A stretch of DNA of 40,301 nt, from positions 1 to 40,301 of the IMG/VR virus record IMGVR_UViG_3300045971_000321; one strand, 5' to 3'. The notes under the pieces are model-generated. The model made no database searches and was not told the DNA's origin. It was given only the letters and a program-made list of their open reading frames with translations. Within the stretch, counting starts at the first letter, position 1; the number at the start of each line of letters is the position of its first letter. Origin of the DNA: a virus. The translations under genes and the position numbers were made by a program. Positions 1-40,301 of the stretch are shown here, piece after piece.

Positions 1-82
1 GGACCGAACGGAGTCCAGAAACAGCGCCCAGACCCCGGAGAACGCCCCGGCGTTCCAGGAGCCGCCCGAATTCACACAAAGC
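1..82 (-). repeat. DGR variable repeat, duplicate of its 5' part through terminal redundancy
   Basis: Bases 1-82 equal 40175-40256, the 5' two thirds of the VR in the coding sense. It is not a second VR; it appears because the contig was opened inside VR. Confidence 0.95.
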
Positions 83-127
83 TCATTCAAGCGGTTGTCG
101 TACATGTAGTCATTGCCGAACTGGTTG
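1..127. repeat. Terminal redundancy, left copy (circular contig)
   Basis: Bases 1-127 are identical to bases 40175-40301. The shared stretch lies inside the DGR target gene, and the reading frame continues across the join, so the molecule is circular (unique length about 40,174 bp). An overlap of exactly 127 is also a common largest k-mer of short-read assemblers, so it is probably an assembly overlap rather than a biological terminal repeat. Confidence 0.95.
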
Positions 128-1302
128 GAGCCACCTGTACCGCCGACCAACGGGATGCCAGCGCCGGCCACCGCCCATGCCGTGCCGCTGGTTGCAGCGG
201 AGAGCACTTGTGCGGCTGAGCCAAAGCCCTTGTTTGCAACTGCGGCCGTCATGCTTTCGTATGTGGCACCCAGACTGGTGTACATCGCTGCCAGACCGGT
301 TGCGCCCCATGCGTCAGTCGCCAGCGTGTTGCCGGCTGTGATTGTGGTCACATCCACCGTGGTGTTGAGCAAATAGAAGTTGGTGCCGTTGCTGGTCAGG
401 CCGAAGGGCTCAATGCCCCACACCGTGCCGTTCAGATCTGCAACGCCGCAGTTCTGGCCGTTGTGTGTCGTCTTGGAAAAGAAGTTAGCGCTGCCGGTCT
501 TATTGCAGTTTGTGGCCGTACCGTCGTCCAGGAATGCAAGGGTTGCGTCATTGGCGTCACCCAGCGCATTGTTGTTGCAGCCCTTGGGGAAGTTCATAGC
601 GCCTGCGCTGTACCAAGCGCAATAGGTTGTGCCGCTGCTGGCACTACCGTGTGCGGTGGCAAGCATGGCCAGGGCGGAGCGGATGAAGCGGCTCATCACA
701 AAGAAGGCGCTGCCGCGTGTCTTGGCGGCGGCAATAGAGCCATAGAAGGCATTGGCCGGGGCGCCCGTGAGCGTGGCGAATGCCGTGCTTGCAACCGCAC
801 CACGTTGGGCGCTGGCCAATGGCACACCGTTCTTCAGGCTGGACGCCACCCCGCTATTGTTGGAGCAGTAGTACTTGTCCACAAACACACCAGGTCGCAC
901 GGTGTTGCCGTTGTAGAACGCGCGATGCAGCGCATATCCTGCGGCATTGGCTGTGGCGATGTCCGCGAAATACGAAAACGCTTTGATGTCAATGACATTG
1001 AGCGCAAAGCCGTTGGCGCCCGTGCCGTACTTGTAATAGAAGGCCGGGATGTACACCATGATGCTGCCGTCCGTGTACTGGTAATTTCCGTACGTGTCAG
1101 AAGCCGGATCTTCAGTGCCATACAGCTTGGCAAAGTTCGTAGGCAGGCTGGGTGCAATGCCCACGCCAAAGCCCTGCTGACCGGCAACGCCAATGTTGTT
1201 GATGGCGCCTGCGCCAATGGCAGAGCCAATGCGAATACCGTTGGGGAAGCTGACGGGCGATCCGTCAGGGGTTTGAACGGCGCGGGTAACGAGTGTGCTC
1301 AT
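1..1302 (-). CDS. DGR-diversified tail/receptor-binding protein, residues 1-434 (gene crosses the window join)
   Basis: The frame is open from ATG at 1302 to base 1 and continues across the circular join to a TGA at 40130-40132, giving 448 residues. A GAAAG ribosome-binding element lies 6 nt upstream. The N-terminal half looks like a tail-fibre attachment region. The middle and C-terminal parts resemble the formylglycine-generating-enzyme/C-type-lectin fold of DGR targets: a VFVDKYYCSN-like segment near residue 140, and a C-terminal GGSW...VR...YGFR pattern. The variable repeat starts at residue 407. Seen: the frame and the TR match. Known: DGR targets of this fold bind ligands through variable surface residues. 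Inferred: this is the adsorption protein at the tail tip, displayed on virions. It follows the tail-tip genes at the end of the tail operon, which fits. Confidence 0.9.
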   Translation of the reverse strand, partial: MSTLVTRAVQTPDGSPVSFPNGIRIGSAIGAGAINNIGVAGQQGFGVGIAPSLPTNFAKLYGTEDPASDTYGNYQYTDGSIMVYIPAFYYKYGTGANGFALNVIDIKAFSYFADIATANAAGYALHRAFYNGNTVRPGVFVDKYYCSNNSGVASSLKNGVPLASAQRGAVASTAFATLTGAPANAFYGSIAAAKTRGSAFFVMSRFIRSALAMLATAHGSASSGTTYCAWYSAGAMNFPKGCNNNALGDANDATLAFLDDGTATNCNKTGSANFFSKTTHNGQNCGVADLNGTVWGIEPFGLTSNGTNFYLLNTTVDVTTITAGNTLATDAWGATGLAAMYTSLGATYESMTAAVANKGFGSAAQVLSAATSGTAWAVAGAGIPLVGGTGGSNQFGNDYMYDNRLNELCVNSGGSWNAGAFSGVWALFLDSVRS

Positions 1303-12670: not shown

Positions 12671-13858
12671 CTATTTCTCCATGACGGCCAGTGAGCCGCT
12701 GAAGAAGGTAGCCGTGGTGGCACTGCACAGGATGTTGTGCAGCAGGCACGTGCCGTTGTATAGCCGGATGCCAGGGGAGCCGATGAGCTTGGGCGTGGAC
12801 ACATTCACCACGGCGGTGCCGATGGTCGAAATGTCGCGGCAGATCATCAGGCTGATGGAGCCGGTCAGCATGGAGGTGCCCAGCGTGATGCTCTGGATAC
12901 TTTGGACACCGGTGTCACCCGCTGCCAGCTGGAACCACACGATGGTGCCAACCACTGGCGTGGCCGGTACCTGCGAGCCAGCAATGGCGGACAGCGTAGC
13001 TGTGCGACCCGCCACGCCCTTGCTGTTGGTATAGCTGACGGTCAGGTTAGCCCCTGCAGCCGCCAGTGTGGATGCCGCCGTGATCAGCAGCGCGGTGGTG
13101 CAGCCTTCACCGTTGGTGGTGCCGTTCACGTCCCGTGCGGGTAGCGTGGGCGTGGTGATGGCTTGCGCGGTCGTGGTAGTGACTACCAGGCCGGAGTTCA
13201 CCCAGAGGCAATCAAAGAAGTCGTTGGTGTGGTTGACCGACGAGGCCATTTCCAACGCGGTCAGATAGTTGCCACCGGTGGCTGCATTGGGGATGGGAAT
13301 GCAGCCGTAATCCGCTGCTGTGGTGCCATCGGTCACGCGGCCATTTACGCCGGGTGTACCAACAGCCCATGCGCCGGGGTAGCCAGCATCCTTGCTGGTG
13401 CAGTACCAGCAGCCCGCCACATCCGTCGCGGTAGATGTTTTCATGAAGGGGATGGACTTGCCGCCGTAATTGCCCAGGCCAGCGGCAGGGTACTCTGCGC
13501 CGTTCTGATCGCGGTGCACCCAGGAGCCATCTTCCCGGTAGCCCATGTTTTCACCAGGCAGCAGAACGAACTGCATCAGTTCGACGCTGTTGGTACCGTC
13601 AAAGTGCTCTACACCTACCACGCAGGATGTGCCCACGCTGTTGTTGGTAACGTAGATGGCCTTGACGTTGCGCTGCGTGCTGGCTGCAGGGCTGGCTACG
13701 ATGGTTGTCGTGGTGGCCGTGGTGATGCGGGTGTTGGTGCGGCCGGGCGTGATGGTGGTACCGTTCACGTCCACATAGCTGGTGTGCACCTCTATGGTGG
13801 ACGCGGCTGCGCCGGTGATCAGGCGAACAATGTCGCTGACGCTGGTGAGTAGCAGCAT
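12671..13858 (-). CDS. Virion structural protein, beta-rich
   Basis: This 395-residue protein is Thr/Ser/Gly/Val-rich with few charged residues (ITTATTTTIVASPAASTQRN, SIPFMKTSTATDVAGCWYCT, TLAAAGANLTVSYTNSKGVA). That is typical of extracellular virion proteins made of beta sandwiches. Cysteines (SCVVG, GCWYC, CTTALL) may form disulfides. It lies between capsid and connector genes, and could be a head fibre or decoration protein. Family not recognised. The next start lies 3 nt after its stop. Confidence 0.7.
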   Translation of the reverse strand: MLLLTSVSDIVRLITGAAASTIEVHTSYVDVNGTTITPGRTNTRITTATTTTIVASPAASTQRNVKAIYVTNNSVGTSCVVGVEHFDGTNSVELMQFVLLPGENMGYREDGSWVHRDQNGAEYPAAGLGNYGGKSIPFMKTSTATDVAGCWYCTSKDAGYPGAWAVGTPGVNGRVTDGTTAADYGCIPIPNAATGGNYLTALEMASSVNHTNDFFDCLWVNSGLVVTTTTAQAITTPTLPARDVNGTTNGEGCTTALLITAASTLAAAGANLTVSYTNSKGVAGRTATLSAIAGSQVPATPVVGTIVWFQLAAGDTGVQSIQSITLGTSMLTGSISLMICRDISTIGTAVVNVSTPKLIGSPGIRLYNGTCLLHNILCSATTATFFSGSLAVMEK

Positions 13859-25954: not shown

Positions 25955-26149
25955 TTAGGCCCCCTTGCCGGTTTGCGGGATTGGCTTCGACGCCCCTCCT
26001 GGCAGGTACTTCAGCCGCAAGGCGAAATCCCATGGTTTCGGTAAGCCTCGCGCTCGCCAGTTGCTTACAACGCTCTGTCTTACGCCAAGGGCCGACGCGA
26101 GCTTTCCCACGCCCCCCTCGGTATCGATTGCAGTTTGAAGGATGTCCAT
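25955..26149 (-). CDS. cro: Cro-like HTH regulator
   Basis: This 64-residue protein starts MDILQTAIDTEGGVGKLASA, and the helix-turn-helix LASALGVRQSVVSNWRARGL is the YdaS/Cro type found opposite CI genes. A GTG directly before the ATG would add one residue; the ATG is preferred. It is the first gene of the minus-strand early operon and should repress the CI promoter. The next gene starts one base after its stop. Confidence 0.85.
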   Translation of the reverse strand: MDILQTAIDTEGGVGKLASALGVRQSVVSNWRARGLPKPWDFALRLKYLPGGASKPIPQTGKGA

Positions 26150-26163
26150 CACTTCACTATATC
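26135..26163 (+). promoter_or_regulatory. Predicted promoter for the repressor gene
   Basis: TTGAAG (26135-26140), a 17-nt spacer and TATATC (26158-26163) point toward the repressor gene. Its -10 overlaps that of the opposing cro promoter, so the two should compete. The expected transcript start is about 10 nt before ATG 26178. Confidence 0.55.
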
Positions 26164-26184
26164 ACTTTAGTGTTGTTATGAAAA
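26156..26184 (-). promoter_or_regulatory. Predicted cro promoter (early minus-strand promoter)
   Basis: On the minus strand TTTTCA (26184-26179), a 17-nt spacer and TATAGT (26161-26156) precede cro. The expected start falls at or next to the cro ATG (26149), which would make a leaderless message. Operator 1 covers the -10, so it would be blocked by repressor. Confidence 0.6.
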
Positions 26185-26210
26185 CCACCAAAGTGATACA
26201 CAGGTGTGAT
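26161..26210. promoter_or_regulatory. Tripartite operator between cro and cI
   Basis: Three sites share the pattern ATCAC-4-GTGAT: 26161-26174 (ATCACTTTAGTGTT), 26184-26197 (ACCACCAAAGTGAT) and 26197-26210 (TACACAGGTGTGAT, weaker). The first overlaps the -10 boxes of both divergent promoters; the second touches the cro -35. Three adjacent sites echo the OR layout of lambdoid phages. The first site is identical in its 14 bases to the one at 27396-27409. Confidence 0.75.
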
Positions 26211-26639
26211 TTACTTAAATTTATGGATGAAACACAAGGGCAGCGCCTCAAGCGGTTGCGATTAGCAAAAAAACTGACACAGAAAGAGGTCGCAAAGTTT
26301 GGTGATGTAGGGCAAACGGCTATCGCAAATATCGAGGCAGATGCGCGGGGATATGGCGCAGGCATCGTAGGCATTGCCAAAGGTCTTGGTACTACACCTG
26401 AGTACTTGCAGCTTGATGATCAACTTAAGCCAGTATCAACACTGTCCGGAAGTCAAGCTGGTGCTTCTTCGTATTGTTGGCCGTTCCTAACCGTAAGCCC
26501 GACCCAGTATTACGAAGTGATGACGCAGACCCAGCGCGATATTTTGGAGGCTACAGCCCACTCGTTTGTGGGTGCCAGAGAGTCGCCTGAAAAACAGGAA
26601 GCGCCCGCGCCAAGTGCCACAAAGGTTCATTCAACTTGA
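26178..26639 (+). CDS. CI-like XRE-family repressor
   Basis: This protein has 153 residues from ATG 26178; ATG 26223 (138 residues, MDETQGQRLKRLRLAKKLTQ) is an equally possible start. The helix-turn-helix is LTQKEVAKFGDVGQTAIANI, followed by IEADARGYGAG and GLGTTPEYLQL. Divergent orientation to cro, with operators between, identifies it as the lysogeny repressor. It is shorter than lambda CI, and I see no S24 peptidase segment with a Ser-Lys dyad, so RecA-driven self-cleavage is unlikely and induction must work another way. No good ribosome-binding site precedes either ATG. Confidence 0.8.
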   Translation: MKTTKVIHRCDLLKFMDETQGQRLKRLRLAKKLTQKEVAKFGDVGQTAIANIEADARGYGAGIVGIAKGLGTTPEYLQLDDQLKPVSTLSGSQAGASSYCWPFLTVSPTQYYEVMTQTQRDILEATAHSFVGARESPEKQEAPAPSATKVHST

Positions 26640-33801: not shown

Positions 33802-34202
33802 GCACGCTCAAACGCGGCCTGACCCACCAGGAGGCCATGGATTACGTTGGCGTGAAGCGCCGCACCTTCGATGAAGTGTGGCGGCCGCAGTTGGTGGCCA
33901 TGCGCCAGGGCGCTTGCGTGATCTTCGATCGCATGGACATTGACCGCCTGTTTGACCGGTTCAAGCAGGAAGCGTCCGGCCAGCCAGAGGCGGCCAACGA
34001 ATCGACAAGCCAGGCCTTGGCGGCGCACAATGGCGGCCGGAACGAACGGCCCATCAAACCGAAAGGAGAAAAAATATGGGCCAAAACACACGGGGAATCT
34101 ATCCCGAAGACAACGGGCTCTGGCAGGTTGACAAGTGGAAACGGGGCACTCGATTTCGCCAGCGCGGCTTCGAGAGCTTTGACGAGGCGGAACGCTGGCT
34201 GA
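33798..34202 (+). CDS. Putative excisionase/helix-turn-helix DNA-binding protein
   Basis: This 134-residue protein has an N-terminal region (LTHQEAMDYVGVKRRTFDEV, then FDRMDIDRLFDRFKQ) that fits a MerR/excisionase-type winged helix: a first helix, a turn with a recognition helix, and a wing. The C-terminal 70 residues are low-complexity and overlap the integrase start. Its place directly before int suggests Xis, which bends att DNA and directs excision. ATGA overlap with the preceding gene. The C-terminal tail may be dispensable. Confidence 0.7.
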   Translation: MSTLKRGLTHQEAMDYVGVKRRTFDEVWRPQLVAMRQGACVIFDRMDIDRLFDRFKQEASGQPEAANESTSQALAAHNGGRNERPIKPKGEKIWAKTHGESIPKTTGSGRLTSGNGALDFASAASRALTRRNAG

Positions 34203-35254
34203 TCACTCAGCTGGCGGGCCAGCGGGAAGTACTGGTGCATGGGCAGCGTGCGACATACACGTTTGACCAGGCATCGGCCCACTACATCAGCTTGCACGAG
34301 CAAAAGGCCTCTCTTGAAACTGAGATCTTCATGCTGACAAGTGTCATGCCCTATATCGGCAAGCTCGACCTGCACCAGGTGCACGATGGTTCGCTCGCGC
34401 CCTTCCAGACCGCAAGGTTGGCAGAAGGACGTGCGCACAAGACCATCAATCTGGCGCTGGGTGTGGTGCGCCGCATTCTCAACCTGGCGGCCACAAGCTG
34501 GCGGGATGAGAGCGGGAAGACATGGTTAGAGCAGGCACCCAAGATCACACTGCTGCCCCTGGTTGGTCACCAGCGCGAACCGCGCCCGATCACATGGGGA
34601 GAGCAGCGCACCCTACTGCCCAAGCTGCCGGACCATCTGGCGCGCATGTCGCTGTTCACCCTGAACACTGGCGTGCGTGACGATGTGGTCTGCAGCCTGC
34701 GGTGGGAATGGGAGATCAAGGTGCCAGAGCTGGGCATATCGGTGTTCGAGGTGCCACGGGAGCACGTCAAAGGGCGCAAAAAATCGCGGGTGGTGATCTG
34801 CAATAGTGTGGCGCAGTCGGTAATTGAATCCGTGCGTGGCCAGCACAAGGACTTCGTCTTTGTCTACCGGCGCGAACGGGTGAAAAACACCGACCAGGCT
34901 CCGAAAATGCCCTATCGACCCATTGGAACCATGAACAACACCGCCTGGCAGACGGCACGCAAGGCGGCGGGCCTGGGCGATCTGCACGTGCATGACCTGC
35001 GCCACACCATTGGCATGCGTCTGCGCGAGGCGGGTGTGGCCGAGAGCACGATCTCCGACATCCTGTGGCACAGCACCAAGACGATGACCCAGCATTACAG
35101 CGTGGCTCAGATCGTGGAGCTGCACCAGGCGCTGGAGAAGGTGAAGGACGATGCTGGCCGGTGGAACAAGAGCCTGGCAACGCTCAAACGCGAGCAGGCG
35201 GGGGATTTCGGGGAGGCCACTCCCCCAAAAGTCCCCCAGGTGAAGGTAGCGTAG
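34076..35254 (+). CDS. int: Tyrosine-recombinase integrase
   Basis: This 392-residue protein catalyses site-specific integration and excision between attP and the host tRNA. The catalytic set is visible: R201 (NTGVRDDV), HDLRH at 306-310 (H306, R309), H332 (LWHSTKTM) and nucleophile Y341 (TQHYSVAQ). The N-terminal 60 residues look like an arm-binding domain, and 60-150 like the core-binding SAM-like domain. The start is supported by AAAGGAG 8 nt before the ATG. It overlaps the candidate xis by 127 nt in another frame. attP lies immediately downstream, as usual. It is full length. Confidence 0.95.
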   Translation: MGQNTRGIYPEDNGLWQVDKWKRGTRFRQRGFESFDEAERWLITQLAGQREVLVHGQRATYTFDQASAHYISLHEQKASLETEIFMLTSVMPYIGKLDLHQVHDGSLAPFQTARLAEGRAHKTINLALGVVRRILNLAATSWRDESGKTWLEQAPKITLLPLVGHQREPRPITWGEQRTLLPKLPDHLARMSLFTLNTGVRDDVVCSLRWEWEIKVPELGISVFEVPREHVKGRKKSRVVICNSVAQSVIESVRGQHKDFVFVYRRERVKNTDQAPKMPYRPIGTMNNTAWQTARKAAGLGDLHVHDLRHTIGMRLREAGVAESTISDILWHSTKTMTQHYSVAQIVELHQALEKVKDDAGRWNKSLATLKREQAGDFGEATPPKVPQVKVA

Positions 35255-35469: not shown

Positions 35470-35502
35470 AAAAAAGCCCCCCACCCACGAGGGATGGAGG
35501 GC
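35470..35502 (-). terminator. Rho-independent terminator ending the late operon
   Basis: On the minus strand an 11-bp GC-rich stem with G-T wobbles (arms 35491-35502 and 35476-35486) is followed by six T (35475-35470). It lies 40 nt after the last late gene. A second 7-bp hairpin (35508-35514 with 35523-35529) sits between the gene and this stem. Confidence 0.8.
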
Positions 35503-35937: not shown

Positions 35938-36453
35938 TCAGATCTGCGCTACCTCAGCATGGCGCCGAATGGTCAGCCCCTTGAGTACACGGCCGCCGGC
36001 CTTGTCCCATTTCAGAACTTCACCAGGCACAGCCTCCCAATCGGCAGCATTTACCTTTTTTCGCAATGTGCTGGCGCGCAGGTTCCCGCTGCCGAGGTTG
36101 AATGTCCAATCGATGAGCGCAGCCACCCTGCCAGGCGATTCATGGATGACTGCGGGACACCACCTCAACACGGCTGGCAGGTAGACGGTCTTGACGTGCC
36201 AGAGCAGCAGGGCCTCGGCGCGTTCCCGCGTGATCAGCGGATCGTGTAGGGTGACACGGGTGCCGTCCTCGTAGTAGGTTGCCCCATAACCAATAGTCGG
36301 CACGCCAGCCGGGCAAAGGTATGGGACCAGAAACAGGCCCTCGAAGCGCCGGATCAGCGCCAGGGTGATGGTCAGCGCGTCCACGGCCAGTTCCACCAGA
36401 TCAGCCAGATTGCTAGCGGGCTCATTTTCCGCGCTTAAAGAGAGAACGGTCAC
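35938..36453 (-). CDS. Endolysin, GH24 lysozyme (T4/P22 type)
   Basis: This 171-residue muramidase cleaves the MurNAc-GlcNAc bond of peptidoglycan at the end of infection. The catalytic signature is clear: RRFEG with E38, eight residues, C47, five residues, T53 (VPTIGYG). This is the E-8-C-5-T arrangement in which Cys replaces the Asp of T4 lysozyme, as in several phage lysozymes. The C-terminal part (LIDWTFNLGSGNLRASTLRK) is the usual second lobe. The N-terminal 35 residues are not a convincing signal-anchor, so export through a holin lesion is expected. It overlaps the upstream membrane gene by 32 nt. Confidence 0.92.
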   Translation of the reverse strand: MTVLSLSAENEPASNLADLVELAVDALTITLALIRRFEGLFLVPYLCPAGVPTIGYGATYYEDGTRVTLHDPLITRERAEALLLWHVKTVYLPAVLRWCPAVIHESPGRVAALIDWTFNLGSGNLRASTLRKKVNAADWEAVPGEVLKWDKAGGRVLKGLTIRRHAEVAQI

Positions 36454-37874: not shown

Positions 37875-37951
37875 GCTACGGCTCCAATCACTGCAAAAAA
37901 GATGGTGAGTAGGTAAATGAGGATTGCAATCCAAACGGTACGCCGGGTCAT
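37862..37951 (-). CDS. 29-residue single-pass membrane peptide in lysis cassette
   Basis: The ATG overlaps the upstream stop by one base (TGATG), giving MTRRTVWIAILIYLLTIFF and ten more residues ending in AWKF. Three N-terminal charged/polar residues are followed by about 22 hydrophobic ones, so it is a strong single membrane span with a basic cytoplasmic start. It overlaps the next membrane gene by 13 nt. Such tiny overlapping membrane ORFs near holin genes can be pinholins, antiholins or holin regulators. The coupling and composition make it credible despite its length. Confidence 0.55.
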   Translation of the reverse strand: MTRRTVWIAILIYLLTIFFAVIGAVAWKF

Positions 37952-38415
37952 CACAGTCCCAGTTTTGCTTTTTCGACGCGGCCCCACTGGCGCACGGCTT
38001 CAACGAATTCGCCAAAGACCGTCATCGCCTGCATTTCATCGCTGGCTGGGCTGTACAGGCCAACAGCAGCGCCCACACCAATGCGCGCGAAATACATTTC
38101 GTCGTCAATGGAATACGAGGCGCGGATCTGCTGAATCATCCGTTCGCCAATCAAGCGCACGTGCGGGCTTGCGGCCTTTATTTGCTCTTTGAGTACTGGG
38201 TCCAGCGGTGTGGCAAGCACTTCGATGCTGGCAGTAATGGCTGCTGGCTGGTTGGTGGGCAGCGTGTAGCCATCGAACAGCGCAACGATTGTGCGACCGT
38301 CAGGAAGCGTGGCCAGCTCTTGTCCCGCCTGCTCTCCGGGCTGTGGATCAGGAAGACGCAGCGCGTGGGTGGTAATGGAGTCGATAACTCGGCGGTAGGC
38401 GATCAAAGATGTCAT
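37951..38415 (-). CDS. Hypothetical phage protein downstream of the DGR RT
   Basis: This 154-residue protein starts with MTSLIAYRRVIDS. It is a mix of charged and hydrophobic stretches (SIDDEMYFARIGVGAAVGLY) with no signal peptide or clear membrane segment, and I do not recognise the family. It begins inside the RT gene (68-nt overlap) with its own GAAAG ribosome-binding element 9 nt before the ATG, like several structural genes here, so it is likely translated independently. The stop overlaps the ATG of the next tiny membrane ORF by one base. Its position between the DGR and the lysis genes is compatible with a virion-associated or lysis-linked role, but the sequence does not show which. Confidence 0.7.
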   Translation of the reverse strand: MTSLIAYRRVIDSITTHALRLPDPQPGEQAGQELATLPDGRTIVALFDGYTLPTNQPAAITASIEVLATPLDPVLKEQIKAASPHVRLIGERMIQQIRASYSIDDEMYFARIGVGAAVGLYSPASDEMQAMTVFGEFVEAVRQWGRVEKAKLGL

Positions 38416-39367
38416 GGTGCTTGTCTTTCAAGTGGGTTAAGAGTGGGTGAAGTGAGCAAGTGCGCTTGGCGTGCCCCAAGCGCGAAATAATCGATTCGAG
38501 TTTTCCCCGACGGGCGTCATATCGCAGGGCGCTGACAATGCGCGGGCGCACAAAGCGGCCACTTGCCCAGGTGCGGAATCCGACAAAGTTGGCGCCCCGC
38601 TTGACTGGGTGCAGGCTGTAATGGCTGACCTCTAAGCCCAGTAGAGCCAGGTGCTTGCGAATGCTCTGCAGCCACAGCAGCCCGGTTGCCCGGTCGGGCG
38701 CCAACATGATGCTGTCGTCCATGTAGCGGCCGTATTCCTTGACCCGCAATTGGCGCTTGCAAAAGTGGTCCAGGCTGTTGAGATACAGGTTTGCGAATGT
38801 CTGGCTCATCAGGTTGCCAATGGGCACACCGGTGGGCTCGGGGCGCTGTGCAAATGCGTGCATGAGTTTCATCAACGGCGCGCACTTGATGATCTTGCCC
38901 AGCAGCACCTGGAGCACGTCGCGGTCGATGCTGTAGAAGAACTTGCGCACGTCCACGTGCAACACCCAGTCTGTGCGCGGGGCCCGGCGCATTGCCGCCT
39001 GCAGCCAGTCTGCTGCGACATGGGTGCCGCGCCCTACCCTGCAGGCAAAGTTGGTGTGGATGTAGTGCGCCTCAAAGATCGGCGATGTCACTGCATAGAT
39101 TGCGTGCTGCACCACCATGTCCCGAAAGCTTGGCGCTTCGATCAGGCGAGGCTTGCGGCCATCAGTCACCCAGAACCGGCTGCATGGGTGCGGCCGGTAT
39201 GTGCCAGCCAGTAGGTCGGCTTGGATTAATGCGAGATTGGTGCCCAGGTTGCGGCCAAATTCAAAGCAGGCCCGGTGGCTGTGCTTATTGCGGCTGGCTT
39301 GGTGGTAAGCCGCCAGCAGCGCGTCTGTTGTGCAGATGCGTGGATACAGATTGCCTATGCGCTTCAT
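38348..39367 (-). CDS. DGR reverse transcriptase
   Basis: This 339-residue protein, from the ATG of MKRIGNLYPRIC, is the error-prone enzyme that copies TR RNA into mutated cDNA. Motif A is HVDVRKFFYSID with D139. The DGR-type motif GVPIGNLMSQ is at 180-189 (I-G-x-x-x-S-Q, where retroviral enzymes have Q-G-x-x-x-S-P). The catalytic YMDD is at 215-218 (D217, D218). The region after 250 (HPVKRGANFVGF) is the usual motif following the palm. The open frame extends upstream into TR, but this ATG gives the standard N-terminus of DGR RTs. There is no maturase or RNase H domain and no retron-type msr/msd element. Its 3' end overlaps the next gene by 68 nt. The enzyme looks intact. Confidence 0.95.
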   Translation of the reverse strand: MKRIGNLYPRICTTDALLAAYHQASRNKHSHRACFEFGRNLGTNLALIQADLLAGTYRPHPCSRFWVTDGRKPRLIEAPSFRDMVVQHAIYAVTSPIFEAHYIHTNFACRVGRGTHVAADWLQAAMRRAPRTDWVLHVDVRKFFYSIDRDVLQVLLGKIIKCAPLMKLMHAFAQRPEPTGVPIGNLMSQTFANLYLNSLDHFCKRQLRVKEYGRYMDDSIMLAPDRATGLLWLQSIRKHLALLGLEVSHYSLHPVKRGANFVGFRTWASGRFVRPRIVSALRYDARRGKLESIISRLGHAKRTCSLHPLLTHLKDKHHDIFDRLPPSYRLHYHPRAASS

Positions 39368-39517
39368 GCCAAGGCTTCCATACCAATTTTCTGAAAGCGG
39401 CCAACATGGGCCGCGACACGTACCAAAGGGTTTGCAAGCAAAACATTTCGCCGCAAGGCACGACGGGGGCTCCCTCTTCGCCAGACGGTACACACCGCAT
39501 GAGGCGTTATTGGCGGA
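39368..39517 (-). ncRNA. DGR spacer RNA between TR and RT
   Basis: This 150-nt gap lies between the TR 3' end and the RT start codon. In studied DGRs the RNA just downstream of TR is required for priming and for binding of the RT-Avd complex. No convincing gene is seen; a reading frame crosses it but does not belong to a known family. The functional assignment rests on position only. Confidence 0.5.
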
Positions 39518-39634
39518 GAGTCGGAGCGAAACCCATAGTTCGTGTTCGAGTTGGACCGAACGTTGTTCAGATTCAGCGCCCAGACCCCGGAGATCGCCCC
39601 GTTGTTCCAGTTGCCGCCCGAATTCACACAAAGC
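39518..39634 (-). repeat. DGR template repeat (TR)
   Basis: This is the invariant donor copy for mutagenic homing. It begins 3 nt after the avd stop and ends 150 nt before the RT start. In the VR frame it is rich in AAC codons (eight AAC plus one AAT, mostly at the positions that vary in VR). This is the well-known DGR design, since A-mutagenesis of AAC reaches many amino acids but never a stop codon. It is presumably transcribed with avd and RT as the template RNA, reverse transcribed with random insertion opposite A, and the cDNA replaces VR. It is non-coding by role even though an open frame runs through it. Confidence 0.95.
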
Positions 39635-39637
39635 ATG

Positions 39638-40093
39638 TTAAGCCCCCACCGCATTCGCGGGCTCACGCCCTTGAATGTCTGCGCCCACAGCCATCTGGCT
39701 GTGAACGTCTTGATTGACCCACCCTCCAATCATTCGGCCCAGTTCGTCCACCAGCCGCAAGATCACCAGGTGGCGCCGGTCACCCGGTGCCGTTGTGTCT
39801 TTGCGTCCTGCGCTGAAGTCAAACAAACCCAGCTCGTGCGCCAGGTTGATCAACATGCGCAACTGCTCGTGCCGAATGTCCAATTGGGTCAGGGTAGTTT
39901 TCTTGTGATAGCGCTTTTGGGCCTCGGTCACCAGGTTGTACACATCAACAAACGCCACGCGGATGGCCTGCGTCAAGCTGTGCTTGTGGCAGTTTGGAAA
40001 GTGGGCCAAGTAGCCCTCCAGGGCAACTGCAAAAAGCACCAGCTTGCGGTGCAAGCCAGCTTCGGCGTGGATGGTTTGTTTGAAGTGCTTCAT
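39638..40093 (-). CDS. avd: Avd, DGR accessory variability determinant
   Basis: This 151-residue protein is helical and basic (MKHFKQTIHAEAGLHRKLVL..., with segments such as AFVDVYNLVTEAQKRYHKKT). Length, charge and helix spacing match Avd, a four-helix bundle that forms a pentameric barrel, binds the template RNA and partners the DGR reverse transcriptase. It follows the target gene by 36 nt and is followed 3 nt later by TR, the usual target-avd-TR-RT order. The C-terminal 30 residues look disordered. Family assignment comes from sequence character plus locus position; the locus makes it firm. Confidence 0.85.
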   Translation of the reverse strand: MKHFKQTIHAEAGLHRKLVLFAVALEGYLAHFPNCHKHSLTQAIRVAFVDVYNLVTEAQKRYHKKTTLTQLDIRHEQLRMLINLAHELGLFDFSAGRKDTTAPGDRRHLVILRLVDELGRMIGGWVNQDVHSQMAVGADIQGREPANAVGA

Positions 40094-40105
40094 GGGGACG
40101 GGGAT

Positions 40106-40127
40106 GCCTAATCGCTAGCGCTCAGGC
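40106..40127. other. Near-perfect 22-nt palindrome just 3' of VR (candidate DGR cruciform)
   Basis: The sequence gcctaatcgctagcgctcag plus gc folds into a stem with one G-A mismatch and one G-T wobble, centred on CGCTAGCG. It starts 12 bp past the VR 3' end and lies between the target stop and the avd start. Phage DGRs such as that of Bordetella phage BPP-1 need a hairpin/cruciform a short distance downstream of VR for efficient homing. Position and symmetry fit that role, but the tiny loop differs from the classical four-base loop. It has no T-tract, so a terminator is unlikely. Confidence 0.5.
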
Positions 40128-40129
40128 CA

Positions 40130-40301
40130 TCACAAATACGAGGCGGAGCGAAACCCATAGCTCGTGTACGAGGCGGACCGAACGGAGTCCAGAAACAGCG
40201 CCCAGACCCCGGAGAACGCCCCGGCGTTCCAGGAGCCGCCCGAATTCACACAAAGCTCATTCAAGCGGTTGTCGTACATGTAGTCATTGCCGAACTGGTT
40301 G
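40130..40301 (-). CDS. DGR-diversified tail/receptor-binding protein, C-terminal part with the variable repeat
   Basis: This is the 3' end of the gene that starts at 1302 on the other side of the join; 40175-40301 repeats 1-127. The residues encoded read ...GGSWNAGAFSGVWALFLDSV then RSASYTSYGFRSASYL and stop, so VR covers residues 407-446 of 448 and only two residues follow it. Against the template, ten residues differ (N to S, A, F, D, S, A, Y and S; I to F; D to A), while the scaffold W, G, V, R and YGFR residues are unchanged. That is the expected split between a lectin-fold scaffold and varied binding-site positions. The stop lies 36 nt before the avd start, with a hairpin between. Confidence 0.9.
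   Translation of the reverse strand, partial: NQFGNDYMYDNRLNELCVNSGGSWNAGAFSGVWALFLDSVRSASYTSYGFRSASYL
40140..40256 (-). repeat. DGR variable repeat (VR)
   Basis: This 117-bp copy aligns without gaps to the TR at 39518-39634 (offset 622). The two differ at 15 positions, and at every one the TR base is T on the plus strand, meaning A in the coding sense. No other base differs. The TR holds 24 such adenines, so 15 of 24 are substituted, to G, C or T in the coding sense. Identity stops abruptly at both ends. By DGR rules the 3' end (near 40140) should carry the initiation-of-mutagenic-homing element. Part of VR is present again at 1-82. Confidence 0.95.
40175..40301. repeat. Terminal redundancy, right copy (circular contig)
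   Basis: This is the second copy of the 127-bp sequence at the window start. It carries codons of the DGR target protein in the same frame as bases 1-127. Count this stretch once when treating the genome as a circle. Confidence 0.95.

What the first reader, a model, noticed from the sequence alone, without database searches (positions are those of the whole stretch)
38348..40256. Complete diversity-generating retroelement in a temperate siphovirus late operon
Reading the minus strand the order is target gene with VR, hairpin, Avd, TR, spacer, reverse transcriptase. The RT has the DGR-specific IGNLMSQ motif and intact YMDD; Avd and TR are adjacent. All parts look functional. The system would vary the phage adsorption protein and so its host range. 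The association of DGR, tail module and lysis cassette in one late transcript suggests homing occurs during lytic growth.
Basis: partly seen in the sequence, partly recalled or inferred. Interest (0 to 1): 0.92.

Follow-up and report, generated by a model that had tools for sequence, protein, structure and literature searches.

The report
Phage mutator cassette for attachment protein
This bacterial virus carries a complete copy of a known kind of genetic machine (a diversity-generating retroelement) that randomises the tip of one of its surface proteins; the machine is ordinary in design, but the small DNA hairpin that marks its target is of an apparently undescribed sub-type shared by a group of related viruses.

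Summary
On the minus strand lie, in order, a target gene ending in VR (40140-40256), a hairpin, Avd, TR (39518-39634), a structured spacer and a DGR reverse transcriptase. VR and TR (117 bp) differ at 15 sites, all TR adenines (0 of 93 other bases; P about 4e-13). The RT falls among DGR RTs, not group II introns or a retron. Avd and target match solved DGR proteins: BPP-1 Avd, and TaqVP, a C-type-lectin variable protein. The contig is circular, so the target gene (448 aa) runs across its ends. The layout is that of phage BPP-1, including the lysis genes downstream. In near-identical relatives only VR differs, always at adenines, so the family is active in nature; for this phage, activity is inferred from concerted TR/VR change. 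One detail looks new: the post-VR hairpin of this clade is not a plain GC stem but has a constant 5'-GA/GA-3' tandem-mismatch core under a covarying outer stem, in lineages that demonstrably diversify. This phage's loop (GCTA) also breaks the published GRNA consensus.

The parts
38348..39367 (-). DGR reverse transcriptase, 339 aa, motifs IGNLMSQ and YMDD
   Evidence: phrog_1423 E 6e-91, Pfam RVT_1; PDB 8ub7 (BPP-1 bRT) E 6e-52; DGR side of tree, SH-aLRT 99; SQ motif
39368..39517 (-). Spacer (Sp) RNA between TR and RT, expected platform for RT-Avd and cDNA priming
   Evidence: conserved in 17 relatives; 18 of 38 predicted pairs have compensatory changes, 94.7% of cells paired
39518..39634 (-). 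Template repeat (TR), 24 adenines, IMH* at 3' end
   Evidence: DNA match to the annotated BPP-1 TR
39638..40093 (-). Avd accessory protein, 151 aa
   Evidence: Pfam bAvd E 4.5e-14, phrog_3206, profile hit to 4dwl/8ub7 Avd E 1e-40; below NCBIfam's equivalog cut-off, 59.8 vs 80 bits
40106..40127 (-). Target hairpin GCCT-GA-GC-GCTA-GC-GA-TT-AGGC: 4-bp outer stem, tandem GA/GA mismatch, 2-bp inner stem, loop GCTA
   Evidence: family comparison and covariation
40140..40256 (-). Variable repeat (VR), the 3' end of the target gene, with IMH
40130..40174 (-). 3' end of the target gene (448 aa in all) after crossing the contig join
   Evidence: 127-bp terminal repeat; joined ORF translated
1..1302 (-). 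5' part of the target gene (C-type-lectin variable protein)
   Evidence: profile hit to 5vf4 TaqVP E 8e-30; AF2 model of the L003 orthologue, pLDDT 85.8, TaqVP Z 31.2, Mtd Z 13
35938..36453 (-). Endolysin, downstream in the same-strand gene run
   Evidence: Phage_lysozyme E 4e-30, phrog_7
35476..35502 (-). Terminator-like site closing the late gene run

Best explanation
It is a complete, BPP-1-type diversity-generating retroelement of a temperate HK97-type siphovirus, probably of a Burkholderiales (Comamonadaceae-like) host. The avd-TR-Sp transcript would be bound by RT and Avd. The RT copies TR into cDNA with random bases opposite adenines, and the cDNA replaces VR at the 3' end of the target gene, guided by IMH and the hairpin after the stop codon. 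This re-randomises 13 codons of a TaqVP/Mtd-like C-type-lectin domain (up to 23 adenines, no stop codon possible), most likely the phage's receptor-binding protein. Shown here: the anatomy, adenine-only divergence, homology of RT, Avd and target, Sp structure, and population-level VR diversification in DGR relatives. Inferred: homing in this very phage, the receptor-binding role, and timing.
For: 15 of 15 VR/TR differences at TR adenines. RT nests with DGR RTs and has SQ, not SP, in the motif. Avd and target profiles hit solved DGR proteins. Sp RNA covariation. Same gene order as BPP-1 including endolysin downstream. Relatives identical in compared RT, Avd, TR and upstream target DNA differ in VR by 13-15 bases, all at adenines: L020/L021, L043/L045/L048. 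TR non-adenine substitutions between the window and L003/L004 are each mirrored in VR, 6 of 6 and 5 of 5. VR adenines sit mainly in AAY codons (10 of 14 A-containing codons) and no variant gives a stop.
Against: No reads or second genome of this phage were available; an exact 41-base probe found no other record, so activity in this phage is indirect. Its hairpin loop (GCTA) breaks the GRNA consensus, and changing the BPP-1 loop to CTTT nearly abolishes homing (PMC3240598). The Avd score is below NCBIfam's equivalog cut-off.
Confidence: 0.93

Rival explanations
1. The cassette is a recently inactivated DGR: parts intact, but homing impaired by the hairpin loop change.
For: Loop GCTA in place of GRNA; in BPP-1 the loop sequence matters strongly.
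Against: RT, Avd and target are open and conserved. VR still matches TR at all 93 non-adenine sites. The same loop occurs in L003, whose private TR change at site 105 is mirrored in its VR, and in the distant L351, whose VR is heavily diversified.
Confidence: 0.1
2. The target is a displayed C-type-lectin protein that is not the host-adsorption protein (for example binding surfaces or polysaccharide in general).
For: No receptor data; FGE-like C-type-lectin domains occur in varied proteins.
Against: It sits last in the tail module, after tape measure and tail genes, and resembles the BPP-1 receptor-binding protein Mtd.
Confidence: 0.15
3. The post-VR hairpin acts as an RNA element (terminator or avd translation control), not as a DNA target mark.
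For: It lies 12 nt before the avd start codon and tandem GA motifs are also stable in RNA (own knowledge).
Against: No T-run follows. Loops are GRTA or GRNA and mostly not GNRA. The element stays just after VR in families with unrelated stem sequence.
Confidence: 0.15
4. The repeats are a plain duplication and the RT is a group II intron or retron enzyme.
For: RT scores on a group II model, far below its cut-off.
Against: Adenine-only divergence, RT tree and motif, Avd.
Confidence: 0.01

Closest known systems
Bordetella phage BPP-1 DGR (mtd-avd-TR-brt)
   Same: Gene order, 117-134 bp TR/VR, adjacent Avd and TR, spacer before RT, hairpin after the target stop, lysis genes downstream, C-type-lectin target
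   Different: RT about 36% identical; target belongs to the TaqVP rather than the Mtd sequence family; BPP-1 hairpin is an uninterrupted 8-bp GC stem with GAAA loop, here GA/GA-interrupted with GCTA
Thermus aquaticus prophage DGR variable protein TaqVP (5vf4)
   Same: C-type-lectin FGE subtype with VR at the C-terminus; profile E 8e-30, model Z 31.2
   Different: Different host and phage; about 20% identity; extra N-terminal residues here
Pseudomonas phage Bise, unnamed DGR
   Same: Nearest named phage RT found (44% identity); target-Avd-TR-RT order with 116-bp TR/VR
   Different: Different host; followed by a DNA methylase rather than lysis genes; plain-stem hairpin
IMG/VR contigs L003 and L004
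   Same: 89% RT identity, orthologous 91% target
   Different: Different VR at adenines; L004 loop is GGTA

Membership tests
Diversity-generating retroelement | TR and VR differing essentially only at TR adenines | tested here: met
   15 of 15 differences at adenines, 0 of 93 elsewhere
Diversity-generating retroelement | RT of the DGR clade with xGxxxSQ motif and YxDD | tested here: met
   IGNLMSQ, YMDD; DGR group SH-aLRT 99 against group II and retron-like RTs
Diversity-generating retroelement | Accessory protein (Avd or equivalent) | tested here: met
   Pfam bAvd above cut-off; profile hit to BPP-1 Avd 4dwl
Diversity-generating retroelement | IMH/IMH* distinction at the 3' ends of VR and TR | tested here: met
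   Fixed TR GAC / VR GCC and divergence beyond it, shared by 68 of 80 relatives
Diversity-generating retroelement | Hairpin after VR with 7-10 bp GC-rich stem and GRNA loop (phage DGRs; PMC3240598) | tested here: inconclusive
   A covarying inverted repeat is present, but the stem is broken by tandem GA and this loop is GCTA; single-strand folding energy is not unusual (z -0.10)
Diversity-generating retroelement | Structured spacer RNA between TR and RT | tested here: met
   18 of 38 pairs with compensatory change, above controls
Diversity-generating retroelement | Mutagenic homing takes place | tested here: inconclusive
   Shown for relatives at population level; for this phage only mirrored TR/VR changes
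C-type-lectin (TaqVP-like) DGR variable protein | C-type-lectin fold with VR at the C-terminus | tested here: met
   Model of the 91%-identical L003 orthologue, Z 31.2 to TaqVP over 302 residues
Receptor-binding protein of the virion | Binds the host surface as part of the tail | not testable with these tools
   Only position in the tail module and fold support it

The most novel reading that the evidence does not exclude
This clade of phage DGRs uses a distinct class of target hairpin in DNA: a 4-6 bp outer stem of variable sequence, a constant tandem G.A mismatch (5'-GA/GA-3'), a 2-bp inner stem and a GNNA loop. The homing machinery would recognise the conserved non-Watson-Crick core rather than a plain GC stem, and it tolerates loops outside GRNA.
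Probability: 0.6. Interest if true: 0.45.

Novelty: new member of a known kind. Interest (0 to 1): 0.3.

Why it matters
As a DGR it adds one more complete phage cassette to a catalogue of tens of thousands. The useful part is the hairpin. How the target DNA hairpin helps homing is unsettled: in BPP-1 it is required for efficiency, its loop sequence matters, and its role is still debated. A natural family in which the stem is built around a conserved tandem G.A core, and in which VR diversification is visible in the same genomes, gives a ready set of variants to test whether stem stability, shape or loop sequence is what is recognised.

Tried and rejected
Group II intron or retron origin of the RT: rejected. 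A second VR elsewhere in the genome: none. First AlphaFold run with 14 close sequences failed (pLDDT 28); 48 diverse sequences gave 85.8. Pfam on single targets found nothing; three of 48 family members gave weak FGE-sulfatase hits. phmmer with the single Avd found no PDB hit; the profile did. Simple inverted-repeat scoring missed the hairpin until the tandem GA was allowed. DNA folding energy alone does not single it out. Search for other records of this same phage by exact 41-mer: none. Rfam and tRNA scans of the window: nothing. No paper mentioning DGRs with Rhodoferax or tandem-GA DGR hairpins was found in the open-access library; subscription papers were not searched.

Full report
What is in the sequence. 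On the minus strand, 5' to 3', lie the end of the target gene with VR (40140-40256), a small inverted repeat (40127-40106), Avd (40093-39638), TR (39634-39518), a spacer (39517-39368) and a reverse transcriptase (39367-38348). TR and VR are the only such repeat pair in the region, and no third copy exists in the genome. Over 117 bp they differ at 15 sites; all are adenines in TR (24 A), and none of the 93 C, G or T sites differs. The chance of that placement is about 4e-13. The 3'-most difference (TR GAC, VR GCC) recurs in 68 of 80 relatives, so I read it as the fixed IMH/IMH* distinction; 14 of 23 mutable adenines have changed. Ten of the 14 A-containing codons are AAY and no substitution can make a stop codon.

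The contig is circular. It has an exact 127-bp terminal repeat. The target ORF therefore crosses the join (1302 to 1, then 40174 to 40130) and encodes 448 aa ending ...GFRSASYL.

Identity of the parts. The RT is phrog_1423 (E 6e-91), its best PDB match is the BPP-1 RT 8ub7 (E 6e-52), and in a tree of 42 RTs the DGR RTs form one side of a branch with SH-aLRT 99, with the window RT next to L003 and L004. Its motif is IGNLMSQ; the group II comparators have QGxxxSP. Avd exceeds the Pfam bAvd cut-off, and its family profile hits BPP-1 Avd structures 4dwl and 8ub7 (E 1e-40). The target had no single-sequence Pfam hit, but its family profile hits 5vf4 at E 8e-30. That entry is TaqVP, the variable protein of a Thermus aquaticus prophage DGR with a C-type-lectin fold (PMC6328139). 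A confident model of the L003 orthologue (pLDDT 85.8; 91% identical to the window's target) matches TaqVP with Z 31.2, and the BPP-1 receptor-binding protein Mtd with Z about 13.

Spacer RNA. In BPP-1 the spacer folds and recruits RT and Avd, and cDNA starts from a spacer adenine (PMC12875486). Here the TR 3' end and spacer of 17 sequences share a predicted fold with compensatory changes in 18 of 38 pairs and 94.7% paired cells, against 11.3 pairs and 83.6% in shuffles and far less when slid. One helix pairs the TR 3' end with the spacer (columns 12-15 with 74-77).

Activity. Among relatives, L020 and L021 are identical in the compared stretches of RT, Avd, TR and upstream target DNA, yet their VRs differ at 13 sites, all adenines. 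L043, L045 and L048 show 13-15 VR differences under the same conditions. L024 and L026 show 17, and L018, L019, L022 and L023 show 11 to 19, again only at adenines. So the DGR family is active in nature. For the window phage itself there is no second genome. Indirect evidence is that every non-adenine TR difference from L003 (6) and L004 (5) is mirrored in VR, as expected if TR is recopied into VR.

Genome setting. The genes before the target on the same strand are terminase, portal, capsid, head-tail connectors, minor tail protein and tape measure. Genes after the RT on that strand include an endolysin (35938-36453), and a strong minus-strand terminator-like site follows at 35502-35476. A tyrosine integrase (34076-35254) and an HTH repressor (26142-26639) are on the plus strand. 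This fits one late unit in a temperate siphovirus. BPP-1 also has its endolysin just downstream of its DGR, so the association with lysis genes is not new. RT relatives at 67-79% identity lie in Rhodoferax and Burkholderiales genome contigs, which suggests the host group. Whether homing is confined to lytic growth was not tested.

The hairpin. In BPP-1 a hairpin after VR with a 7-10 bp GC stem and a GRNA loop is needed for efficient homing, and a CTTT loop drops activity to near background (PMC3240598); later work finds it important but not absolutely required. Here the element is GCCT-GA-GC-GCTA-GC-GA-TT-AGGC. Plain inverted-repeat scoring misses it and its folding energy is unremarkable. Comparison shows a pattern: 36 distinct post-VR stretches (window included) carry GA-NN-loop-N'N'-GA. 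The core with a GRNA loop occurs in the 120-nt post-VR stretch of 45 of 80 loci and only once in the other 1.18 Mb searched. Around the core the outer stem covaries: 20 different stem sequences in 30 distinct hairpins. In a gap-free set of 14, four of five outer pairs changed on both sides, score 0.518 against 0.158 shuffled and 0.104 or less when slid. In L087 the inner pair changes from C-G to T-A with the GA/GA kept. A 5'-GA/GA-3' block is the classic tandem sheared G.A motif (own knowledge); counting it as two pairs gives this stem 8 pairs, within the published range. In L020 and L032 the same place holds Watson-Crick pairs instead. The type occurs in this clade and in the sister group sampled with A6 (17 more). 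It was not found in loci sampled with the BPP-1/VP58.5-like query, where plain stems with mostly GAAA loops prevail. The lineages in which VR diversification was seen include ones with this hairpin (L018-L026, L043-L048). I therefore think it is a working variant of the target element, though the G.A pairing itself is inference.

The loop. The window and L003 have GCTA, outside GRNA; L004 has GGTA. A search found one further contig, L351, 70% identical in RT, with the same core and a VR changed at 19 of 27 adenines, including the 3'-most A-to-C that matches the fixed IMH marker. So GCTA is rare but compatible with past homing.

Verdict. The finding is real and correctly read, and the system is a new member of a known kind with the BPP-1 layout and a TaqVP-like target. 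The catalogue already holds more than 30,000 DGRs with phage lineages that diversify attachment proteins (PMC8144416). The only aspect I found undescribed is the tandem-GA hairpin sub-type.

Noticed in passing
window 40106-40127 and post-VR regions of L004-L088 and L201-L268: Clade-specific post-VR hairpin with conserved tandem GA/GA core and covarying outer stem; described in the report.
   Followed up: yes
L351:1941-1958: A more distant DGR (RT 70% identical) also carries the GCTA loop and has a strongly diversified VR.
   Followed up: partly
L094, L095 (terminase 98-99% identical) versus L003, L004 (RT 89% identical): Packaging genes and the DGR/tail end of this phage have different nearest relatives, which hints at mosaic exchange of the tail-DGR-lysis block; L003 and L094 come from the same sample.
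   Followed up: no
L061:4001-4960: One relative's RT reading frame contains an in-frame stop in the stretch translated; possible decayed DGR or assembly error.
   Followed up: no
window 12671-13858 and 37951-38415: Structural-region gene (395 aa) with no PHROGs match, and a 154-aa gene overlapping the end of the RT gene with no match in Pfam, PHROGs or NCBIfam.
   Followed up: no
L046 versus L043, L045, L048: RT, Avd and TR identical, but only about 215 nt before VR is held, so the upstream comparison (0.35 identity) is not meaningful for this locus.
   Followed up: no
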